Origin: Streptomyces sp. R44
GTDB lineage: Bacteria; Actinomycetota; Actinomycetes; Streptomycetales; Streptomycetaceae
Reading direction: 5' to 3'
Assembly (NCBI RefSeq): GCF_041053105.1
Contig: NZ_CP163444.1
Location: 7,782,501-7,846,500, forward strand
Length of the DNA: 64,000 nt
The notes under the pieces were generated by a model, which worked only from the letters and a program-made list of their open reading frames with translations, did no database searches and was not told the origin of the DNA. Made by a program: the position numbers and the translations under genes. Shown here one piece after another: positions 28,722 to 37,717 of the stretch. The stretch's first letter is position 1; the number at the start of each line of letters is the position of its first letter.

Positions 28722-29678
28722 TCAGGCCGCCGTGCCCAGCCAGGGGCGGCGGCCGGGGCCGGTCGGGTGGGTGCCCGTGGCGCTCATGACCACCGAGTAC
28801 AGGCTGGTCTGGGCGGCGATGAAGAGCCGGTTGCGCTTGGCACCGCCCCAGGAGATGTTGGCGACCGGCTCCGGGACGTTCAGCCGCCCGATCAGGGTGC
28901 CGTCGGGGTCGTAACAGTGCACCCCGTCGCTCATCGCGGCGGCCCAGAGGCGGCCGTCGGCGTCGAAGCGGAGGTTGTCGAAGCGGGCCTCCGCGCGGGC
29001 CGAGGCGTCGGCGAAGACCTTGCCGTCGGAGAGCGTGCCGTCCTCGCGCACGTCGAAGACCCGGATGAAGCCGGCCCGGGTGTCGGAGACGAAGAGGCGC
29101 GTCTCGTCGTGGTTGAAGACGAGACCGTTCGGCGCGGCGAACTCGTCGGCCACCAGGCGTACTTCGCCGCTGTCCGGATCGATCCGGTAGACGTTGTTGG
29201 AGCCGATCTCGCTCTCCGCGCGGTGACCCTCGTAGTCGCTGGTGATGCCGAAGTCCGGGTCGGAGAACCAGATCGAGCCGTCGGACTTCACCGCCGCGTC
29301 GTTCGGGCTGTTCAGGCGCTTGCCCTCCCAGCGGTCCGCGAGCACGGTGACCGTGCCGTCGTGCTCGGTGCGGGTCACGCGCCGGTTGCCCTGCTCGCAG
29401 GAGATCAACCGCCCCTCACGGTCCAGCGTGTTGCCGTTGGTGTGCCCGGCCGTGCGGCGGAAGACCGAGACGGCGCCCGTCTCCTCGTCCCAGCGCAGCA
29501 TCCGGTCGTTCGGGATGTCGCTCCAGACCAGCTGCCGCCAGGCGGGCAGATAGATCGGTCCCTCGGCCCAACGACAGCCCGTGTACAGGACGTCCAGCGC
29601 GTCGTCGCCGTACATGCACCGTCCCGTGAGGAACCGCTCGTCGAACATCTCGTACAGCTCGGGGCGCTCGCCGCTCAT
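28722..29678 (-). CDS. SMP-30 / gluconolactonase family lactonase
   Basis: 318 residues of six-bladed propeller type. SMP-30 hallmarks are CRWAEGPIYLPAWRQLVWSD (metal Glu), GHTNGNTLDREGRLISCEQG, LNSPNDAAVKSDGSIWFSDP (Asn ligand) and APNGLVFNHDETRLFVSDT (Asn/Asp ligands). It would open sugar lactones with a divalent metal in the cytoplasm. The start at 29678 has GAAGGGAAGG upstream. A perfect 9-base inverted repeat at 29718-29749 lies in its promoter, so it is probably controlled by a sugar-acid regulator located elsewhere. Confidence 0.9.
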   Translation of the reverse strand: MSGERPELYEMFDERFLTGRCMYGDDALDVLYTGCRWAEGPIYLPAWRQLVWSDIPNDRMLRWDEETGAVSVFRRTAGHTNGNTLDREGRLISCEQGNRRVTRTEHDGTVTVLADRWEGKRLNSPNDAAVKSDGSIWFSDPDFGITSDYEGHRAESEIGSNNVYRIDPDSGEVRLVADEFAAPNGLVFNHDETRLFVSDTRAGFIRVFDVREDGTLSDGKVFADASARAEARFDNLRFDADGRLWAAAMSDGVHCYDPDGTLIGRLNVPEPVANISWGGAKRNRLFIAAQTSLYSVVMSATGTHPTGPGRRPWLGTAA

Positions 29679-29717
29679 GGGCCCTTCCCTTCGTGAAGCC
29701 ATCACCTGTGCCGAACC

Positions 29718-29749
29718 TGATCCTGCGCGATATGAAGATTGCAGGATCA
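29718..29749 (-). promoter_or_regulatory. Operator in the lactonase promoter
   Basis: TGATCCTGC (29718-29726) and GCAGGATCA (29741-29749) form a perfect inverted repeat with a 14-base AT-richer centre, 40 bases upstream of the lactonase start. Confidence 0.6.
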
Positions 29750-29805
29750 TCTACGGTCCACACAAGGCACTTCCGAACGGAGAGCTGTGGATCACACGGC
29801 TCGTC

Positions 29806-30642
29806 TCACTCCTCCCCGCCCTCCTCGTCCTCCTCGTCCTCCTCCGCCTCCACGGCGAACAGCGCCCCCTCCGGATCGCGGACCACCAACCTCCGTTCGT
29901 CGTCACCGCCCGGCGGCCGCATCCCGGCCCACTCGCCGCCCGGCACCACCGACCCGCCGTACGCCGGCACCGCCTCCCGCGCCGCCGCCAGATCCCGCAC
30001 CCGGAAACGGACCAGCCACCGCGGCCGCAACTGCGGGCGGGACGACTCGGATTCGACCGGACCGCTGTCGAGCCGCGCGACGGCCTCGCCGCCCCGCCGC
30101 AGCACCACCCCCTCGTGCTCGTACGACACCTCGGTACCGCCCTCGCTCCCGTCCGCCCAGCCCAGCACCCCGCCGTAGAACACGGCCGCGTCGAACGCGT
30201 CGCGGGTGTGCAGCTCCACCCAGGCCGGCGCCCGCCGCTCGCCGACGTGCCAGCGCGACACCAGACGCCCCTCCCACACGCCGAACAGGGCACCCTCCAG
30301 ATCCGTCGCGAGCGCCGCCCGGCCCCGGGGCGGATACGCCAGCGGGCCGACCCCCACCGTGCCGCCACGCTCCCGGATCCGCGCCACCGCCGCGTCGGCG
30401 TCCTCCACGGCGAAGAACACCGTCCAGGCCACCGGCCCCGCCGGCTCCGCGTCGAGCGCCGCGATCCCCGCCACCGGCACCCCGTCCCGCTCACCCACCA
30501 CGTACGCGTCGCCGAAGGCACCCGGCCGGAACGTCCACCCGAGCACCGCCCCGTAGAAGCGCTGCGCCGCCTCCAGATCGTGCGCGGACAGATTCAGCCA
30601 GCACGGTGCTCCCACCGCGTCCCCGGTCGTCGGCCCCGACAC
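29806..30642 (-). CDS. VOC family protein (two modules) with acidic tail
   Basis: 278 residues with two glyoxalase-like modules. Module one is WLNLSAHDLEAAQRFYGAVL to EGALFGVWEG; module two is WVELHTRDAFDAAVFYGGVL to DPEGALFAVEA. The C-terminal tail is almost entirely Glu/Asp (EEDEEDEEGGEE). GTG 30642 has GAGGAGG eight bases upstream. The gene lies 82 bases downstream of the flavoprotein operon on the same strand, so it may be its last member or separate. The ligand is unknown. Confidence 0.82.
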   Translation of the reverse strand: MSGPTTGDAVGAPCWLNLSAHDLEAAQRFYGAVLGWTFRPGAFGDAYVVGERDGVPVAGIAALDAEPAGPVAWTVFFAVEDADAAVARIRERGGTVGVGPLAYPPRGRAALATDLEGALFGVWEGRLVSRWHVGERRAPAWVELHTRDAFDAAVFYGGVLGWADGSEGGTEVSYEHEGVVLRRGGEAVARLDSGPVESESSRPQLRPRWLVRFRVRDLAAAREAVPAYGGSVVPGGEWAGMRPPGGDDERRLVVRDPEGALFAVEAEEDEEDEEGGEE

Positions 30643-30724: not shown

Positions 30725-33457
30725 TCAGCGGGCCGCGCGGGAGGCGTAGGCGCGCACGTCCGCGTCCGGGTCGTCCGCCGCCCCGGCGAGCGCGGCACGC
30801 GCGGCCGGTTCGGCCCGGTGGGCCAGGAGCGACAGGACGGCCGCCTTGCGCACGTCCGCGTTCGGATCGGCGAGCGCCCCCGCGAGCGCCGGGACGGCGA
30901 GGCCCGGAGGCGCCGCCCGGAGCGCGGTCGCCGCGCCGGACCGCACCTGCCAGGCGCCGTCGCCGAGCGCGGCCCCCGCCCCCGCCGCGTACGCCGGAGG
31001 GCAGCCGGTGCCCGCGAGCGCGGCCAGGGCGGCTCCCCTGACCAGCGGGTCGGCGTCGTCGAGCAGCGGCGCGAGCGGCTCCGGCGCGGGAGCCCGTACG
31101 GCCGCGAGACCACGGGCCACCGCGACCCGGACCTCGCGCGCCGGATCGGCGGCGGCCCGCGCGAGCTCCGCGACCGCGTCCACCGAGACCAGCGCCCGCA
31201 CGGCCTGGACGCGTACCTCCACGGAGGCGTCGCCGAGCGCGCCCGCGTACAGCGGGGCGTCCCCGAGCCGCAGCGCCCGCAGGACGTCGAGCGCGGCGCC
31301 GCGCACGGCCGGATCGGGCACACCGAGGGCCTCCCGGAGACCGTCCCCGAGCGCCGGCTCGGCGGGCAGCACCTCGACCAGCTCCCGCAGGGCCGCCGAG
31401 GCCGCGGCCCGGACCGGCGCCGCTCCGTCCCGCAGCCGGGCCGCGAGCGCCGGACCGGCCCCGGCCGGCGCGGTCTCCCCGAGCGCGGTCACGGCGGCCG
31501 CCCGCACCGTCGGATCGGCGTCGTCCAGATACGGGCCGAACGCCGCCAGATCGGGGGAGTCCTCGACGAGCGCGAGCAGCCCGAGCAGCCGGGGATGCGG
31601 CCCCGCGGGCGCGGGTGCCTCGGCCGGCGCCCCGGCGGTGACCGGACCGGGACCCGGGGCCGCGGGGACGGCCTCCCGCGCTCCGGCCGTGGCCACCGGC
31701 ACGAGCGCCACCTCGCCGAGGAGCCGCTCCGGACCGCCGGGCGGCGAGAACTCCGGCACCGGAACGACATAGGGCTCCACCGGGCGCGCCGTGAACTCCA
31801 TCGCCCCGGAAGGGGACTTGCGCAGATCCAGATGGTGCAGCCAGCCCGTGTCGTCCCGCTCGGGGTGGTCGAGCCGCTCGTGGTAGAGCCCCCACCGCGA
31901 CTCCGTCCGCGCGAGCGAGGCACGCGCCGCCATCTCGGCGCAGTCCCGGATGAACGACACCTCCGCGCACCGCATCAGCTCGTGCGCCGTGCGCGCCCCC
32001 ATCCCGGCGATCTCCGTCGACATCCGGTCGAACGCCTCCACGGCCAGGGAGAGCTTCGCACCGGTCTTCGGCGGTGCCACGTAGTCGTTGACGAAGCGCC
32101 GCAGCTTGTACTCGACCTGGGGCTGCGGCGGCCCGTCGGGGTTCCGCAGCGGCCGGTAGACGAGCTCGTGGGCGGCCGCGAGCTGACCGGCGTCCAACTC
32201 TCCTCCGTACGCGCGGTACCGAGACGCGTCCTCGCCCGCCAGGTCGCCGAAGACGAACGCGCCGATCATGTAGTTGTGCGGTACGGAGGCCAGGTCGCCG
32301 GCCGCGTACAGCCGGGGCACGGTCGTGCGGGCACGGTCGTCCACCCTCACCCCGGAGGCCGAATGGCCGCCGCACAGGCCGATCTCCGAGATGTGCATCT
32401 CGATGTCGTGGGTCCGGTAGTCGTGCCCCCGGTTCGCGTGGAACGTGCCCCGGGTGGGCCGCTCCGTGGTGTGCAGGATCGACTCGACGGCGCCGATCGT
32501 CTCCTCGGGAAGATGGCTCAGCTTCAGATACACCGGCCCCCGGTCCGAGGCGAGTTCGGCCGCGAACTCGGCCATCATCTGCCCCGACCAGTAGTCCGAC
32601 TCCACGAACCGCTCTCCGTGCCGGTTCACCTGGTACCCGCCGAAGGGGTTGGCGACATAGGCGCAGGCCGGGCCGTTGTAGTCCTTGATCAGGGGGTTGA
32701 TCTGGAAGCACTCGATCCCCGTGAGCGCCGCGCCCGCGTGGTACGCCATCGCGTAGCCGTCGCCCGCGTTCGTCGGGTTCTCGTACGTCCCGTACAGATA
32801 GCCGGAGGCGGGCAGGCCGAGCCGCCCGCAGGGGCCGGTCGCCAGGATCACGGCCCCCGCGCGGACCACGACGAACTCCCCGGTGCGGGTGTGGAACCCG
32901 GCCGCGCCGACGGCCCGGCCGTCCTCCGGGTGGGTGAGCACCCGGACCGGCATGACCCGGTTCTCGATCCGGATCCGCTCCCGCATCTCGCGCCGCCGCA
33001 GCTGCCGGTAGAGGACCTTCTTCACGTCCTTGCCCTCGGGCATCGGCAGCACGTACGAGCCGGACCGGTGGACCTGCCGGACCGCGTACTCCCCGTGCTC
33101 GTCCTTCTCGAACTTCACCCCGTACGACTCCAGGCGCCGGACCATCGCGAAGCCGCGGGTCGCCGTCTGCCGGACGGTGGACTGGTCGACGAGGCCGTCG
33201 TTCGCGCGGGTGATCTCGGCGACGTAGTCGTCGGGCTCCGCCCGGCCGGGCACGACCGCGTTGTTGACGCCGTCCATGCCCATGGCCAGGGCGCCGGAGT
33301 GGCGGACGTGCGCCTTCTCCAGGAGCAGGACGTCCGCCCCGCGCTCGGCGGCGGTCAGCGCCGCCATCGTGCCGGCGGTGCCGCCGCCGATGACGAGCAC
33401 GTCGCAGGAGAGCTCGGTCGCGTCGGCGAGGTCGGGGACGCTCAGGGGGGTGTCCAC
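30725..33457 (-). CDS. AprA-like FAD flavoprotein fused to HEAT repeats
   Basis: 910 residues from GTG 33457 (AAAGG upstream). Residues ~15-560 are a succinate-dehydrogenase/fumarate-reductase/APS-reductase flavoprotein: FAD loop VLVIGGGTAGTMAALTAAER, then LLEKAHVRHSGALAMGMDGV (very close to the AprA pattern), GAVILATGPCGRLG, and LYAAGDLASVPHNYMIGAFV. Residues ~615-910 carry about nine HEAT repeats (D..P.VR.AA..AL), an unusual extension that could bind a partner. It should accept or donate electrons through the small ferredoxin at 36513. It is last in the operon, ten bases after the ATPase stop. The real substrate is unknown; a sulfur compound is an inference. Confidence 0.85.
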   Translation of the reverse strand: MDTPLSVPDLADATELSCDVLVIGGGTAGTMAALTAAERGADVLLLEKAHVRHSGALAMGMDGVNNAVVPGRAEPDDYVAEITRANDGLVDQSTVRQTATRGFAMVRRLESYGVKFEKDEHGEYAVRQVHRSGSYVLPMPEGKDVKKVLYRQLRRREMRERIRIENRVMPVRVLTHPEDGRAVGAAGFHTRTGEFVVVRAGAVILATGPCGRLGLPASGYLYGTYENPTNAGDGYAMAYHAGAALTGIECFQINPLIKDYNGPACAYVANPFGGYQVNRHGERFVESDYWSGQMMAEFAAELASDRGPVYLKLSHLPEETIGAVESILHTTERPTRGTFHANRGHDYRTHDIEMHISEIGLCGGHSASGVRVDDRARTTVPRLYAAGDLASVPHNYMIGAFVFGDLAGEDASRYRAYGGELDAGQLAAAHELVYRPLRNPDGPPQPQVEYKLRRFVNDYVAPPKTGAKLSLAVEAFDRMSTEIAGMGARTAHELMRCAEVSFIRDCAEMAARASLARTESRWGLYHERLDHPERDDTGWLHHLDLRKSPSGAMEFTARPVEPYVVPVPEFSPPGGPERLLGEVALVPVATAGAREAVPAAPGPGPVTAGAPAEAPAPAGPHPRLLGLLALVEDSPDLAAFGPYLDDADPTVRAAAVTALGETAPAGAGPALAARLRDGAAPVRAAASAALRELVEVLPAEPALGDGLREALGVPDPAVRGAALDVLRALRLGDAPLYAGALGDASVEVRVQAVRALVSVDAVAELARAAADPAREVRVAVARGLAAVRAPAPEPLAPLLDDADPLVRGAALAALAGTGCPPAYAAGAGAALGDGAWQVRSGAATALRAAPPGLAVPALAGALADPNADVRKAAVLSLLAHRAEPAARAALAGAADDPDADVRAYASRAAR

Positions 33458-33467
33458 AGGATGCCTT

Positions 33468-34226
33468 TCAGAGGGAGTCGAGAACGCGGCGGCGCAGCGC
33501 CTCGGTGACCGGGGCGTCCCGGGCGTCCCGCACCCGCGGGTGCGGCACGTCCAGGACCTCGCCGGTCGCGAACAGGACGACCCGGTCGCCGAGATGGAGG
33601 GCCTCGTCCACGTCGTGCGTGACGAAGACGACCGTCGCGCCCGTGCCGCGCAGGATCTCCACGAGCAGGTCCTGCATCCCGGCGCGGGTCGCCGCGTCGA
33701 GCGCGCCGAACGGCTCGTCCATCAGGACCGCCCGGGGCCGCCCGGCGAGCGCCCGGGCCAGCTGGACGCGCTGCCGCTGTCCGCCGGACAGCCGGTGCGG
33801 CAGCTTGTGGGCGTGCCCGGCGAGCCCGACCCGCTCCAGCCACTCCTCCGCCGTGCGGCGCCGCTCGGCGCGGGGGACACGGCGGATCGCGAGCGGCAGT
33901 TCCACATTGGCGCGGACCGTGCGCCAGGGCAGCAGGGCGTCGTGCTGGAAGACCAGCGCCCGGTCGGCGCCGGGCCGGCGGACCGGCACCCCGTCCTGGG
34001 TGACCCGCCCCTCCAGCGGGGGCAGCAGCCCGGCGAGCGTCCGCAGCAGGGTCGTCTTCCCGCAGCCGGACGGGCCGACGACGGTGAGGAGTTCACCGGG
34101 AGCGATCCGCAGCCCGACGGGGCCGGACACGGCTCCGCCGTCCCGGTGACCGAGCCGGGCGCCGTGCAGGGCGAGTCCGGCACCGGCCGGCACGGGGGTG
34201 GTGGCGGGCGGACTCACGGGGGTCAT
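33468..34226 (-). CDS. ABC transporter ATPase (nitrate/sulfonate/taurine type)
   Basis: 252 residues. Walker A GPSGCGKTT, Q-loop VFQHDALLPW, signature LSGGQRQRVQLARAL, Walker B RAVLMDEPFGALD and switch His VTHDVDEAL are all intact. The closest type is SsuB/TauB. It powers uptake with the permease and lipoprotein encoded just upstream. Its ATG overlaps the permease stop (ATGA at 34223-34226) and the flavoprotein starts ten bases downstream. Confidence 0.93.
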   Translation of the reverse strand: MTPVSPPATTPVPAGAGLALHGARLGHRDGGAVSGPVGLRIAPGELLTVVGPSGCGKTTLLRTLAGLLPPLEGRVTQDGVPVRRPGADRALVFQHDALLPWRTVRANVELPLAIRRVPRAERRRTAEEWLERVGLAGHAHKLPHRLSGGQRQRVQLARALAGRPRAVLMDEPFGALDAATRAGMQDLLVEILRGTGATVVFVTHDVDEALHLGDRVVLFATGEVLDVPHPRVRDARDAPVTEALRRRVLDSL

Positions 34227-35158
34227 GTGACCGGCTCCTTGTCGGGTACGGGGAGGGCGACGGGGGTACGGGCGGCGGCGGGGTCCGCCGGGGCCGCGGC
34301 GCCCGGCGCCGGCGTCGCGTTCGTGCGGCGCGCGGGCGCCGTGGCGGAGTCCGCCGCACGGTCCGGTCCGGCCGCGCCGCCCTCCGCCGGGCGCGGCAGC
34401 CAGGCCGTGAGCCGGCGGCCGAGGGCCTCCACCGCCGTGGAGGTGAGCCGGCCCAGGACGCCGATGGTGGCCATGCCGACGAAGACCCCCGGGTAGTCGA
34501 CGACCGTGTAGTCCTGCCAGGTGCGGTAGCCCACCCCGTACTCGCCGGAGATCATCTCCGCCGAGATCACACAGATCCACGCGACGCCGATGCCCACCGA
34601 CAGGCCGCCGAAGATGCCCGGCAGGGCGCCCGGGAGGACCACCGAGAACAGCACCCGGGTCCTGCCCCCGCCCATGGTGAGCACCGCCTCCTCCCACGCC
34701 GGGTCCAGGGCGCGCACCGCGTGCCGGGTCGACACCAGGACGGGGAAGAGGGCGGCGGCGCAGGTGATGAAGACGATGCCCTGCTCGTTGGTGGGCAGCA
34801 GCAGGATCGCGACCGGCACCAGGGCGATGGCGGGGATCGGCCGGACCACCTCCACCAGCGGGCCCAGGATGTCCGCCGCCCACCGGGACCGGGCGACGGC
34901 CGTCCCGGCCGCCACCCCGAGGACGGCCGCGAGCAGGAAGCCGAGAGCGATCCGGCGCAGGCTGTGGCCGAGGTCCTGCCAGTACGCCTCGGTGCCGATC
35001 CGGTCGGCGAGCGCGGAAGCCACCTCGACGACCGTGGGGAACTGCTCGAACCGCAGCCACAGATGGACGTCCAGGGAGGTCAGCAGCTGCCAGACGCCGA
35101 GCGCCGCGAGCGGGGAGGCCACCCGGACCAGCCGGCGGCCGAGGCCGACGGCGCTCAT
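34223..35158 (-). CDS. ABC transporter permease (SsuC/TauC type)
   Basis: 311 residues with about six membrane helices and the BPD_transp_1 coupling loop EEAVLTMGGGRTRVLFSVVL then PGALPGIFGGLSVGIGVAW, the family EAA motif. Residues ~260-311 are a cytoplasmic Pro/Ala-rich tail absent from most homologues. The ATG at 35158 overlaps the stop of the binding-protein gene (ATGA), and its stop overlaps the ATPase start, so all three are translationally coupled. Confidence 0.9.
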   Translation of the reverse strand: MSAVGLGRRLVRVASPLAALGVWQLLTSLDVHLWLRFEQFPTVVEVASALADRIGTEAYWQDLGHSLRRIALGFLLAAVLGVAAGTAVARSRWAADILGPLVEVVRPIPAIALVPVAILLLPTNEQGIVFITCAAALFPVLVSTRHAVRALDPAWEEAVLTMGGGRTRVLFSVVLPGALPGIFGGLSVGIGVAWICVISAEMISGEYGVGYRTWQDYTVVDYPGVFVGMATIGVLGRLTSTAVEALGRRLTAWLPRPAEGGAAGPDRAADSATAPARRTNATPAPGAAAPADPAAARTPVALPVPDKEPVT

Positions 35159-36498
35159 GACGCGAGCCGCACGGCGTCCGCGTACGCCACGATCCGCGAG
35201 CCGGGGTGCCCGGAGACGTACCGCTCCGCGCCCTCCCGGGTCACGAAGGCGCGCCACTCGCCACCCTCCTGGACCCACACCGCCCGGTCCGCGAACCAGA
35301 GCGTCCCGGTCACCGCGTCCGGCACGTACGCGGCCCGCACCGCCGCTCCCTCGACGGCCTTGAGGAGTGCCCCGGGGCCGTCGAAGGTACGGGTCGACTC
35401 CTGCCCCTTCAGCCAGAGCTCGGCCTTCGCCGGGACCGCCTTCGGGTACGCGGCGCCCGGGGCCGCCCGTCGCAGCGGAGCCGTGTCGACGAAGGCGTCC
35501 ACGTCGACGTCCTTCACCAGACCGGCCTCCTTGAGGACCGGCACGTCCTCCTTGAGCGCGGAGACCAGCTCGGGCCGGAGCGCCGGGTCGAAGGTGGCGA
35601 TGCCGTGGGCGCCGTTGTAGAGGTAGACCACCTCGGCGGGCAGCCCCGTCGCCTTCGCCACCGACTCGGCCGACGCCACCGGCCGGGTGCGCAGCTCGTC
35701 CGTGGCCCGGCGCTGCGCGCGTAGGAACGCGTCGAGGGCCTCGGGGCGTTCCTTGGCGAACCGCTCGCGGACGGTGACCCCGTGGAAGGTCGGCAGGTTC
35801 AGCTCGGCCCCGTCGTACAACGCCGTCGCCCGGCCCTGGAAGGCGAGCAGACCGGGCCAGGCGACGAACTGGGAGAGCGCGTCGGCGGTGCCCGCCGTCA
35901 GGGCCGAAGCACCCACGCTCGGCTGCTGGTTGACCTTGTGGACGTCCTTCGCCGGATCGATCCCGGCCCGCCGCAGGGCCCGGACGAGCGTCCCGTCGGC
36001 GGCCGAACCGACACTCGTGGACACCTTGCGGCCCTTGAGGTCCTTCAGCGTCCGCAGCGGTGAACCCGGCGCGGTGACCACGGTGTTGAGGCCGCCGCGC
36101 AGGTTGTATCCGGTCACCGCGACCAGCCGCGTCGGCTCCTTGAGCTGCTTCCCGCGCGCCGCGTTGATCAGCAGCGGGAAGTCGCCCATCGAGCCGATGT
36201 CGATCTTCCCCGCCGTCATCTGGGCGGTGATCGGAGCACCGGTGGCGTAGTCCTGCCAGACGACCTTGTAGGTGACGCCGTCCTTCCTGCCGGCCGCCGC
36301 GAGCTCCTCCTCGAAGTAGCCGAGGGAGCGCAGCAGGGTGCCGGCGGTGACGGTGTTGATGGTCTTCGACTGGTAGCCGACGGTCACCGTGACCGTCCTC
36401 CCGCCCGCGGCGTCGTCGGTCCCCCCTCCGCCGCAGGCGGTGGCGAGGGGGAGCAGCAGGGCCAGGGGGAGGGTCAGGGCGAGTCTTCGTGACTGCAT
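35155..36498 (-). CDS. ABC substrate-binding lipoprotein (SsuA/NrtA-like) with NosL-like C-terminal extension
   Basis: 447 residues. The lipobox LATAC at ~17-21 marks a lipid-anchored protein. Residues ~35-345 are an NMT1/SsuA-type binding fold (TVGYQSKTINTVTAGTLLRS, KIDIGSMGDFPLLINAARGK, KGRKVSTSVGSAADGTLVRA). The last ~80 residues go beyond the usual family length. They contain LWFADRAVWVQEGGEWRAFV then TREGAERYVSGHPGSRIVAY, resembling the NosL metal-binding fold. This would capture the substrate outside the membrane for the coupled permease. The ferredoxin gene lies 14 bases upstream. Confidence 0.88.
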   Translation of the reverse strand: MQSRRLALTLPLALLLPLATACGGGGTDDAAGGRTVTVTVGYQSKTINTVTAGTLLRSLGYFEEELAAAGRKDGVTYKVVWQDYATGAPITAQMTAGKIDIGSMGDFPLLINAARGKQLKEPTRLVAVTGYNLRGGLNTVVTAPGSPLRTLKDLKGRKVSTSVGSAADGTLVRALRRAGIDPAKDVHKVNQQPSVGASALTAGTADALSQFVAWPGLLAFQGRATALYDGAELNLPTFHGVTVRERFAKERPEALDAFLRAQRRATDELRTRPVASAESVAKATGLPAEVVYLYNGAHGIATFDPALRPELVSALKEDVPVLKEAGLVKDVDVDAFVDTAPLRRAAPGAAYPKAVPAKAELWLKGQESTRTFDGPGALLKAVEGAAVRAAYVPDAVTGTLWFADRAVWVQEGGEWRAFVTREGAERYVSGHPGSRIVAYADAVRLAS

Positions 36499-36512
36499 GG
36501 GAGTTCGGCCTT

Positions 36513-36740
36513 TCACCGGAGCAGATAGGGCATGTTGACGGTCACCGCGCCGGTGGGACAGCGGGCGGCGCACGGGCCGCAGTACCAGCACTCGTCCACG
36601 TGCATGTACGCCTTGCCGTCCTGCTCGCGGATGGCCAGCGAGTCGAGCGGACACATGTCGACGCAGAGCGTGCAGCCGTCGATGCACTTCGACTCGTCGA
36701 TGGTCACGGGCACGTCGCCGCGCTGGGGGACCACGGGCAT
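36513..36740 (-). CDS. Small two-cluster [4Fe-4S] ferredoxin (AprB-like)
   Basis: 75 residues. Cluster one is CIDGCTLCVDMCP, with three rather than two residues between the first two Cys, unlike the common CxxCxxCxxxCP. Cluster two is CWYCGPCAARCP. The second motif and the overall size resemble the start of APS-reductase beta subunits (AprB), and the AprA-like partner is encoded in the same operon. Together they probably form a flavin/Fe-S redox pair. GGAG lies ten bases upstream of the ATG. It lies 42 bases after the GntR stop and 14 before the lipoprotein start. Confidence 0.88.
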   Translation of the reverse strand: MPVVPQRGDVPVTIDESKCIDGCTLCVDMCPLDSLAIREQDGKAYMHVDECWYCGPCAARCPTGAVTVNMPYLLR

Positions 36741-36782
36741 GGCTGTCTCCAGGAAAGGGGTGTGAGGGGGAGCGGAGCGAGG

Positions 36783-37550
36783 TCAGAGGGAGCGGCGGAG
36801 GACGCCGCTCATGGTGATGCGGTCACCGCGGAACCGGATGAACTCCAGGTCCACCGGCCGCCCGTCGGGCAGACAGGTCAGCCGCTCCAGCATCAGGACG
36901 GCGGCGCCGCGCGGCGCCTGGAGGACGGCGGCGGAGTGCGCGTCGGCGTTGACGGCCTCCAGGGTGATCTCGGCGTGCCCGAGCGGGCCGCCGGTCAGCT
37001 GCTCCAGGAGCCGGAACACATCCGTGTTCTCCAGGTCGCAGCCGAGGAGTTCACCCCCGACGTCCATCGGCAGGTACGACAGGTCGAGCGAGAGCGGCAG
37101 CCCGTTCAGGCGCCGCAGCCGCTCGATGCAGAGCACGTCCGTGTGCTCGGGCAGGCCGAGCCGGTGGGCCACCGGACCGGGGGCGCCGACCGGGCCCATC
37201 GTCCGCACCTCGTTGGTGACCCGGCCGTGCTCGTGCAGGGTCTCGGCGAGCCCCTGGAGCCGGTCCAGGCCGTGCGGGTACTTCTCGCAGACCACCACCG
37301 TCCCGACCCCCGGCTGCCGGTCGACCAGCTGCTCGCCGCGCAGCAGGTCCAGGGCCTGCCGGACGGTGTTGCGACTGGCCCGGTAGTCGGCCGCGATCAC
37401 GTCCTCCAGGGGGAGGACCCCGCCGGGGAAGCCGCCCGCCAGGATCTGGTGGCGCAGCAGATCGGCGAGCTGCCGCGCCCGGTCGGCGCGCAGCCGCCGA
37501 CGGCGGGCGGCGGCGACGGGGCGGGCGGCGGAAGCGGGTTCGGCGGGCAT
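36783..37550 (-). CDS. GntR-family regulator with UTRA domain
   Basis: 255 residues. The N-terminal GntR winged helix is RQLADLLRHQILAGGFPGGV then RASRNTVRQALDLLRGEQLV. The UTRA ligand domain occupies ~85-250 and ends VDLEFIRFRGDRITMSGVLR. As the first gene of the ferredoxin-ABC-flavoprotein operon it should be autoregulatory and sense the imported compound or its product. The start at 37550 is the first Met before the basic leader; the longer open frame upstream is Pro/Arg-rich shadow. Confidence 0.9.
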   Translation of the reverse strand: MPAEPASAARPVAAARRRRLRADRARQLADLLRHQILAGGFPGGVLPLEDVIAADYRASRNTVRQALDLLRGEQLVDRQPGVGTVVVCEKYPHGLDRLQGLAETLHEHGRVTNEVRTMGPVGAPGPVAHRLGLPEHTDVLCIERLRRLNGLPLSLDLSYLPMDVGGELLGCDLENTDVFRLLEQLTGGPLGHAEITLEAVNADAHSAAVLQAPRGAAVLMLERLTCLPDGRPVDLEFIRFRGDRITMSGVLRRSL

Positions 37551-37717
37551 GGCACGGAACGTAGCGGCGCACCGGCCCCGGTGGTGTTGCCGCAGTATTG
37601 CGCCACCTGACACCCCCTCCGTACGCCTCTGACCTGCGGCGACGGTGGGAGGGTGGCGAGATCCGCCACCCGGACGCCCAGCACGTGGACAACCATCCGC
37701 CCACCATGTGGGAAGCG

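What the first reader, a model, noticed from the sequence alone, without database searches (positions are those of the whole stretch)
30725..37550. AprA/AprB-like flavin-ferredoxin pair in an ABC-importer operon with a HEAT fusion
The sequence shows one coupled minus-strand operon: GntR/UTRA, two-cluster ferredoxin, binding lipoprotein, permease, ATPase, and an AprA-like flavoprotein with about nine C-terminal HEAT repeats. The EKAHVRHSGALAMGMD stretch and the CWYCGPC ferredoxin match AprA/AprB patterns known from APS reductases. No APS-assimilation genes lie nearby. The inference is an importer feeding an undescribed flavin/Fe-S reaction on a sulfonate-like compound.
Basis: partly seen in the sequence, partly recalled or inferred. 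Interest (0 to 1): 0.8.

Follow-up and report, generated by a model that had tools for sequence, protein, structure and literature searches.

The report
Importer operon with APS-reductase-like flavoenzyme
This is a conserved bacterial gene set that couples a sulfonate-type importer to a flavin and iron-sulfur enzyme related to APS/PAPS reductase but with a remodelled active site, so it probably frees usable sulfur from an organic sulfur compound by a reaction that remains to be tested.

Summary
One minus-strand operon (30725-37550) encodes GntR/UTRA, a 2[4Fe-4S] ferredoxin, an SsuA-type binding protein, a permease, an ATPase and a 910-aa flavoprotein with nine C-terminal HEAT repeats. NCBI already names the fusion (PRK13800, 'fumarate reductase flavoprotein'), but the succinate/fumarate residues are absent in 23 of 23 relatives aligned. 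The protein forms its own clade, sister to AprA and the FAD-type PAPS reductase of Methanothermococcus; this PAPS reductase is also its best match by sequence and fold. AprA Asn74 is kept, as is a His shared with PAPS reductase; AprA Trp234, Phe261 and Arg265 are replaced throughout the family. The ferredoxin keeps the AprB-type Trp in 86 of 86. Ferredoxin (86 of 90 loci) and HEAT protein (85 of 90) are steady partners in actinomycetes, proteobacteria and cyanobacteria; HEAT is a separate gene in 83 of 83 non-actinomycete loci where it was found. The full importer lies close in only 54 of 90. The nearest described system, asfRABC for aromatic sulfonates, is a sister pair. Best reading: an importer-fed flavin/[4Fe-4S] enzyme that releases sulfite from an organosulfur oxyanion via a flavin-sulfite adduct. 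Substrate and reaction are not shown.

The parts
36783..37550 (-). GntR/UTRA transcriptional regulator, 255 aa
   Evidence: Pfam UTRA E 1.8e-32 and GntR E 5e-13; a GntR match beside the flavoprotein in 49 of 51 actinomycete loci, first in the order in all 49
37583..37607 (-). Candidate operator: imperfect inverted repeat GGTGGCGCAATACTGCGGCAACACC upstream of the GntR gene
   Evidence: the word TGGCGCAA is present upstream of GntR in 47 of 50 sequences; binding not tested
36513..36740 (-). Two-cluster [4Fe-4S] ferredoxin, 75 aa, with the AprB-type Trp after the first Cys of the second motif (CWYCGPC)
   Evidence: Pfam Fer4_7 E 2.7e-11; Trp in 86 of 86 family ferredoxins found
35155..36498 (-). 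SsuA/TauA-type substrate-binding protein, 447 aa
35161..35430 (-). C-terminal NosL-like extension of the binding protein (residues about 357-446)
   Evidence: Pfam NosL E <= 0.1 in 29 of 33 family binding proteins, best 2.6e-7; the window's own copy gave no NosL hit
34223..35158 (-). ABC permease (SsuC/NtrB type), 311 aa
   Evidence: Pfam BPD_transp_1 E 3.6e-19; SsuC/TauC/NtrB NCBIfam models match below cut-off
33468..34226 (-). ABC ATPase (TauB/SsuB type), 252 aa
   Evidence: Pfam ABC_tran E 5.9e-31; best NCBIfam taurine ATPase 223.7 bits, below cut-off 357
31733..33457 (-). FAD domain and C-terminal helical domain of the APS/PAPS-reductase-like flavoprotein (residues 1-575)
30731..31594 (-). 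C-terminal HEAT solenoid, nine helix pairs (residues about 622-909)
   Evidence: Pfam HEAT_2 E 2.7e-23; model secondary structure

Best explanation
The unit takes up an organic sulfur oxyanion (a sulfonate, or a sulfate ester or related compound) through an SsuABC-type importer and hands it to a cytoplasmic flavoprotein/ferredoxin complex built like APS and PAPS reductase. Two electrons pass from the ferredoxin's clusters past the conserved Trp to FAD. The reduced flavin N5 attacks the sulfur, the organic part leaves, and a flavin-sulfite adduct releases sulfite for the cell's own sulfite reductase. The HEAT part is a scaffold that holds the complex, fused to the flavoprotein in actinomycetes. 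Shown here: gene anatomy, family membership and tree, fold, kept and lost residues, gene neighbourhood. Inferred: importer substrate class, electron path, sulfite as product, flavin-N5 chemistry, role of HEAT.
Confidence: 0.47

Rival explanations
1. It works like AsfAB is said to work: a reductase/ferredoxin chain that feeds electrons to a separate oxygen-dependent desulfonating monooxygenase (SsuD type) so that imported aromatic or other sulfonates are cleaved with O2.
For: asfRABC of Pseudomonas putida S-313 is described as reductase/ferredoxin plus ABC transport, needed for aromatic but not aliphatic sulfonates (PMC4267179, passages). SsuD-type monooxygenase is detected at E <= 1e-30 in 23 of 30 genomes that hold the unit, 22 of them over the curated cut-off; the window's own genome has three below it. 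In Sinorhizobium fredii a window-type and an AsfA-type flavoprotein lie side by side, with two LLM oxidoreductases in the same 21-kb stretch.
Against: None of the genes conserved in 48 of 51 actinomycete loci is a monooxygenase; I did not scan the flanks for one. SsuD is not detected in 7 of 30 genomes and the luciferase family (E <= 1e-15) not in 5 of 30, among them the 6.9-Mb Nodosilinea nodulosa PCC 7104 genome (the other four are single-cell or metagenome assemblies, and completeness is not told for any of the 29). The flavoprotein is not an AsfA orthologue.
Confidence: 0.2
2. It runs in the oxidising direction: the flavin takes up sulfite and joins it to an acceptor, or oxidises it, as a detoxification or sulfite-conserving step, with electrons leaving through the ferredoxin.
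For: Dissimilatory APS reductases are reversible (stated in PMC10322725, section 9). TauE/YeiH neighbours in cyanobacteria and sulfur-oxidiser hosts such as Acidithiobacillus and Halothiobacillus fit a sulfite theme.
Against: An importer in the operon points to uptake of the substrate. The window's genome has no Sat-type ATP sulfurylase. AprA pocket residues are lost. In the related MtPAPSR the reverse reaction could not be measured (PMC10322725, section 9).
Confidence: 0.1
3. The substrate is not a sulfur compound: the flavoprotein reduces or oxidises some other imported anion or aromatic, and the APS-reductase likeness is only ancestry.
For: SsuA-type folds bind nitrate, bicarbonate, pyrimidines, PQQ and phosphonates as well. 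The AprA pocket is replaced. Regulators (GntR/UTRA, LysR, Crp) do not name a sulfur signal. Sulfite-type exporters are near only 13 of 90 loci.
Against: Neighbours with a sulfur theme in some loci: TauE and YeiH, a second SsuA-type binding protein with an FMN monooxygenase of the NtaA/DmoA type, LLM oxidoreductases. SdhA His242, Arg286, His354 and Arg399 have no counterpart, so C=C chemistry of the fumarate-reductase kind is unlikely. The closest solved enzymes, PAPS and APS reductase, handle sulfur-oxygen bonds.
Confidence: 0.18

Closest known systems
Assimilatory FAD/[4Fe-4S] PAPS reductase of Methanothermococcus thermolithotrophicus (MtPAPSR, PDB 8a8o)
   Same: Best match by sequence and fold; flavoprotein plus two-cluster ferredoxin subunit with a bridging Trp; Asn57 and His346 kept
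   Different: 25-29% identical; Arg237, Trp206 and Phe233 replaced by Leu, Tyr and Gln in the family; the loop with Lys120-Arg121-Ser122 replaced by a YVLPMP loop; HEAT partner and importer added
Dissimilatory APS reductase AprAB
   Same: Superfamily, EKAxVxxSGA motif, ferredoxin subunit with bridging Trp (AprB position recalled)
   Different: Outside the AprA/PAPSR side by tree; 125 bits against the aprA cut-off of 642 and 33 bits against the aprB cut-off of 136; Arg265 lost
AsfAB of asfRABC (aromatic sulfonate use, P. putida S-313; Cupriavidus metallidurans CH34 Rmet_4334/5)
   Same: Flavoprotein plus two-cluster ferredoxin with SsuABC-type transport genes and a sulfonate link in print (PMC4267179, PMC2864759, passages)
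   Different: Separate clade (100/100); ferredoxin has Gln not Trp at the bridging place and a C-terminal extension; LysR not GntR regulator; no HEAT protein seen beside the CH34, Azospirillum and Paenibacillus pairs, though in S. fredii the neighbouring window-type set has one. The CH34 assignment is mine, by gene number from NuoF Rmet_4300
NCBIfam PRK13800 and PRK08275 ('fumarate reductase/succinate dehydrogenase flavoprotein subunit')
   Same: The window protein is a member above cut-off of both
   Different: The name is not borne out: SdhA/NadB catalytic residues are absent in 23 of 23
SsuABC / TauABC sulfonate importers
   Same: Fold of the binding protein, permease and ATPase type
   Different: All three below the curated cut-offs of the SsuABC and TauABC models; binding protein has a NosL-like C-terminal domain

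Membership tests
Dissimilatory APS reductase (AprAB) | Flavoprotein groups inside the AprA clade | tested here: not met
   Sister clade, family 100/99 and joint branch 96/96; one AprA row only, lacking 132 residues
Dissimilatory APS reductase (AprAB) | Curated aprA/aprB model scores reached | tested here: not met
   TIGR02061 124.8 bits (cut-off 641.75); TIGR02060 32.8 (135.65)
Dissimilatory APS reductase (AprAB) | AprA pocket residues Asn74, Phe261, Arg265 (APS roles recalled), Gln145 (near the 3' position, PMC10322725) and Trp234 (FAD-binding by its PAPSR counterpart Trp206, PMC10322725) | tested here: not met
   Asn kept, the other four replaced in 23 of 23
Dissimilatory APS reductase (AprAB) | Two-cluster ferredoxin subunit with bridging Trp | tested here: met
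   Eight Cys, Trp in 86 of 86
FAD-type PAPS reductase (MtPAPSR) | PAPS loop residues Lys120, Arg121, Ser122 | tested here: not met
   Loop replaced by family-invariant YVLPMP
FAD-type PAPS reductase (MtPAPSR) | Catalyses PAPS to sulfite | not testable with these tools
   needs enzyme assay
Fumarate reductase / succinate dehydrogenase / L-aspartate oxidase | Catalytic His242, Arg286, His354, Arg399 (E. coli SdhA numbering, roles recalled) | tested here: not met
   Asn, gap, Ile, gap in 23 of 23 in this alignment; all four kept in the window genome's SdhA homologues and NadB
AsfAB (asfRABC) | Orthologous flavoprotein | tested here: not met
   AsfA-like rows form a separate clade; CH34 AsfA scores 51 bits against NF006131; the P. 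putida S-313 sequence itself was not at hand
AsfAB (asfRABC) | LysR-type regulator AsfR | tested here: not met
   GntR/UTRA in the window; LysR of 600 aa or more in 15 of 39 cyanobacterial loci and one plasmid locus
AsfAB (asfRABC) | Needed for growth on aromatic sulfonates | not testable with these tools
   needs a deletion strain
SsuABC/TauABC sulfonate importer | SsuA/TauA fold of the binding protein | tested here: met
SsuABC/TauABC sulfonate importer | Curated SsuA, SsuC/TauC and TauB/SsuB model scores reached | tested here: not met
   SsuA_fam 133.3 of 163.5, SsuC 103.7 of 347, TauB 223.7 of 357 bits
NCBIfam PRK13800 | Score over the curated cut-off | tested here: met
   1580.4 bits, cut-off 1196

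The most novel reading that the evidence does not exclude
A third branch of the APS/PAPS-reductase flavoproteins that, instead of an activated sulfate nucleotide, reduces an imported organic sulfur oxyanion directly through a flavin-N5-sulfite adduct. It would be an oxygen-independent desulfonation or reductive desulfation route, with its own HEAT scaffold, NosL-tailed binding protein and [4Fe-4S] maturation partner (Mrp in cyanobacteria, DUF971 in proteobacteria), spread through ordinary soil and water bacteria and hidden under the name fumarate reductase.
Probability: 0.38. Interest if true: 0.82.

Novelty: new variant of a known kind. Interest (0 to 1): 0.62.

Why it matters
Sulfate esters and sulfonates are the major forms of soil sulfur (PMC4267179, abstract), and the bacterial routes for sulfonates in air that I know of use FMNH2 monooxygenases or dioxygenases (recalled). 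A flavin/[4Fe-4S] enzyme of the APS-reductase kind fed by a sulfonate-type importer would be a different chemistry for the same need. It would explain a large family now labelled fumarate reductase (one capped scan confirmed 587 stretches as relatives at E <= 1e-3, of which I saw the best 80) and gives a clear set of assays. It also separates the asfAB marker family from a look-alike pair that may be counted with it.

Tried and rejected
Fumarate reductase/NadB reading: rejected by tree and residues. Orthology with AsfA: considered likely at first from the literature, then rejected. On the C. metallidurans CH34 megaplasmid (the main chromosome was not searched) there is no window-type gene at E <= 1e-40; its two NF006131 matches score 84 and 51 bits, and its AsfAB pair by gene number is the second of these. 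asfA primer test: no primer sequences in the passages seen. Protein database search: switched off, so the spread of the family rests on the genome search, one genome scan and the plasmid collection. Literature: searches listed no paper that I could tie to this family; they cover only open-licence PubMed Central, and I opened seven papers, in passages or one section only (PMC4267179, PMC9694294, PMC2864759, PMC7661421, PMC10441942, PMC3506598, PMC10322725). Two papers on asfA (pmid 19120463, 17222151) and one on ssu (PMC101997) are not held; Vermeij 1999 was not looked up and is known to me only through PMC4267179. Active-site geometry from the model: not used, because of low confidence there. 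NosL copper binding: the extension has no conserved Met or Cys in the alignment, so a copper role is not claimed. Hardly any VIA row reaches the NosL-like part, which excludes nothing. A first count of importer genes took the long cyanobacterial LysR proteins for binding proteins; it was redone without them, and the lower numbers are used.
Full report
What is there. The minus strand of 30725-37550 holds, in order of transcription, GntR/UTRA, a 75-aa ferredoxin, a 447-aa binding protein, a permease, an ATPase and a 910-aa flavoprotein with HEAT repeats. The start and stop codons of binding protein/permease and permease/ATPase overlap; the other gaps are 10-42 bases. NCBIfam assigns the whole flavoprotein to PRK13800 (1580 bits) and its first 570 residues to PRK08275 (863 bits); the aprA model gives 125 bits, far below its cut-off. 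The name of both families is fumarate reductase/succinate dehydrogenase flavoprotein subunit.

How the unit travels. In the window's genus 51 of 150 genomes drawn, the window's own included, hold the flavoprotein at E <= 1e-100, 50 of them over the model's cut-off. In a draw over the phylum 9 of 296 do: the window's own, seven further relatives and G375, which is an Apr-type gene. I fetched neighbourhoods of 17-20 kb for 51 actinomycete loci. 48 have GntR-ferredoxin-binding protein-permease-ATPase-flavoprotein-HEAT in that order and direction. One (L186, genome G099) has GntR-flavoprotein-HEAT-ferredoxin-binding protein-permease-ATPase; one (L181, genome G128) has a flavoprotein match too short for my filter; one (L185) is the Apr-type locus. 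In G099 the HEAT protein is a separate gene in another frame directly downstream. Of 18 family ORFs resolved, 17 are fused (898-965 aa) and one, G099, is not; six loci of that call were not resolved.

Other phyla. tblastn against plasmids gave 51 records, mainly proteobacteria with cyanobacteria and actinomycetes. Over these 80, nine plasmid loci (nine of the 51 records) and the window, 90 in all, the ferredoxin is found in 86 and the HEAT protein in 85. Binding protein, permease and ATPase together are found in 54, at least one of them in 76, none in 14 (which leaves out LysR proteins that a first count took for binding proteins). These are BLAST matches to a few family queries within the stored flank, so distant homologues may be missed. 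The five loci without ferredoxin or HEAT are L075, L081, L092, L098 (both missing) and L122 (HEAT missing). Four of them end within 40-2329 bases of the flavoprotein; L075 has 5288 bases downstream and still shows neither, but in related Nostoc-type loci the two lie several kb away (L067). The full importer is near in 14 of 39 cyanobacterial, 33 of 41 proteobacterial or unplaced and 6 of 9 plasmid loci. HEAT is a separate ORF in 83 of 83 non-actinomycete loci where it was found, and fused in the one actinomycete plasmid locus. Cyanobacteria add an Mrp/NBP35 iron-sulfur carrier (33 of 39), proteobacteria a DUF971/GBBH-like protein (30 of 41), and no locus has both. Those two domains are parts of the plant [4Fe-4S] factor HCF101 (recalled), so a cluster-maturation partner is a fair guess. 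TauE/SafE or YeiH lies within the flank in 11 of 39 cyanobacterial loci, 1 of 41 proteobacterial and 1 of 9 plasmid loci. TauE/SafE is a sulfite-exporter family by its Pfam name; YeiH's link to sulfite is recalled.

Residues. By alignment, AprA Asn74 is N65 here and PAPS-reductase His346 is H365; both are invariant in 23 of 23. AprA Arg265 is Leu, Trp234 is Tyr, Phe261 is Gln and Gln145 is Val in 23 of 23; Leu278 varies. G375 and PAPS reductase keep Arg265, Trp234 and Phe261. The APS-binding roles of Asn74, Phe261 and Arg265 are recalled; Trp206 of PAPS reductase, the counterpart of Trp234, is given as FAD-binding (PMC10322725). The PAPS loop is replaced by an invariant YVLPMP stretch. SdhA His242, Arg286, His354 and Arg399 correspond to Asn, a gap, Ile and a gap; PAPS reductase lacks them too. 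So neither an APS/PAPS pocket nor a fumarate pocket is kept, while the general frame of the sulfur enzymes is. The ferredoxin's second motif begins Cys-Trp in 86 of 86. The Apr-type ferredoxin of L185 has the same Trp (sequence); the three AsfB-type ones aligned have Gln. In MtPAPSR, Trp42 is proposed to take part in electron transfer, and the mechanism proposed is N5 attack on the sulfur with a FAD-sulfite intermediate (PMC10322725, section 9 read).

A telling neighbour. L185, from a distant Actinomycetota family, has an Apr-type flavoprotein and ferredoxin in one island with ATP sulfurylase, siroheme-type sulfite reductase, TusA, ThiS, a JAB protein, a PLP enzyme and an NMT1-type ABC importer. 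That looks like a sulfate-to-cysteine island. The window family keeps importer and enzyme pair but has no sulfate-activation gene in the unit, and the window's genome has canonical CysH/CysD and sulfite reductase elsewhere. The simplest reading is that the substrate arrives ready, from outside.

Against the AsfAB reading. AsfAB is described as a reductase/ferredoxin for aromatic sulfonates that complements Ssu monooxygenase (PMC4267179, passages). The CH34 genome paper names Rmet_4334/5 as AsfA/AsfB and Rmet_4300 as a NuoF homologue (PMC2864759, passages). The NuoF lies at 894 kb, and the flavoprotein/ferredoxin pair 34 kb further is the only one with a PF12838 ferredoxin over cut-off on that replicon. 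Its flavoprotein belongs to the sister clade. In 30 genomes holding the window-type unit (the window's own and 29 chosen from the 80 loci), SsuD is undetected in 7 and the luciferase family in 5; four of these five are single-cell or metagenome assemblies, one is a 6.9-Mb strain genome. So the unit does not always have such a monooxygenase to serve, although 23 of the 30 do have one.

Verdict. A real, conserved, widely spread and misnamed sulfur-type flavin/[4Fe-4S] enzyme with a frequent importer; a sister family of APS/PAPS reductase and of AsfAB, member of neither by the tests made. The chemistry is a proposal.

Noticed in passing
window 35161-35430; alignments of L042, L038, L056 and others: SsuA-type binding proteins of this family carry a C-terminal NosL-like domain without conserved Met or Cys.
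   Followed up: partly
L038 4646-6661, L087 5605-7641 and 14 other cyanobacterial loci: LysR regulators of 632-686 aa, part of which matches the SsuA-type binding protein, beside the flavoprotein gene.
   Followed up: partly
L090 1500-11964, L091: Two Prochlorococcus assemblies carry binding protein, permease, ATPase, YeiH, LysR, flavoprotein, ferredoxin, HEAT and (L090) Mrp in one stretch.
   Followed up: no
L048 10001-14345; Sinorhizobium americanum NZ_CP013110: A window-type and an AsfA-type flavoprotein lie side by side; in L048 the AsfA-type gene is in three tblastn pieces with no listed gene, so perhaps broken.
   Followed up: partly
L185: What looks like a complete sulfate-to-cysteine island with Apr-type flavoprotein/ferredoxin, Sat, sulfite reductase, TusA, ThiS/JAB and an NMT1-type importer in an Actinomycetota genome.
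   Followed up: partly
L039 9945-13878; L096, L113, L120, L124: Acidithiobacillus/Halothiobacillus-type loci add FdxA and a protein of up to 1153 aa with a Pyr_redox_2 domain, perhaps the electron donor.
   Followed up: no
window 29806-30600, minus strand: Tandem glyoxalase/VOC-like protein directly downstream of the unit, then an SMP-30/gluconolactonase gene at 28722-29750.
   Followed up: no
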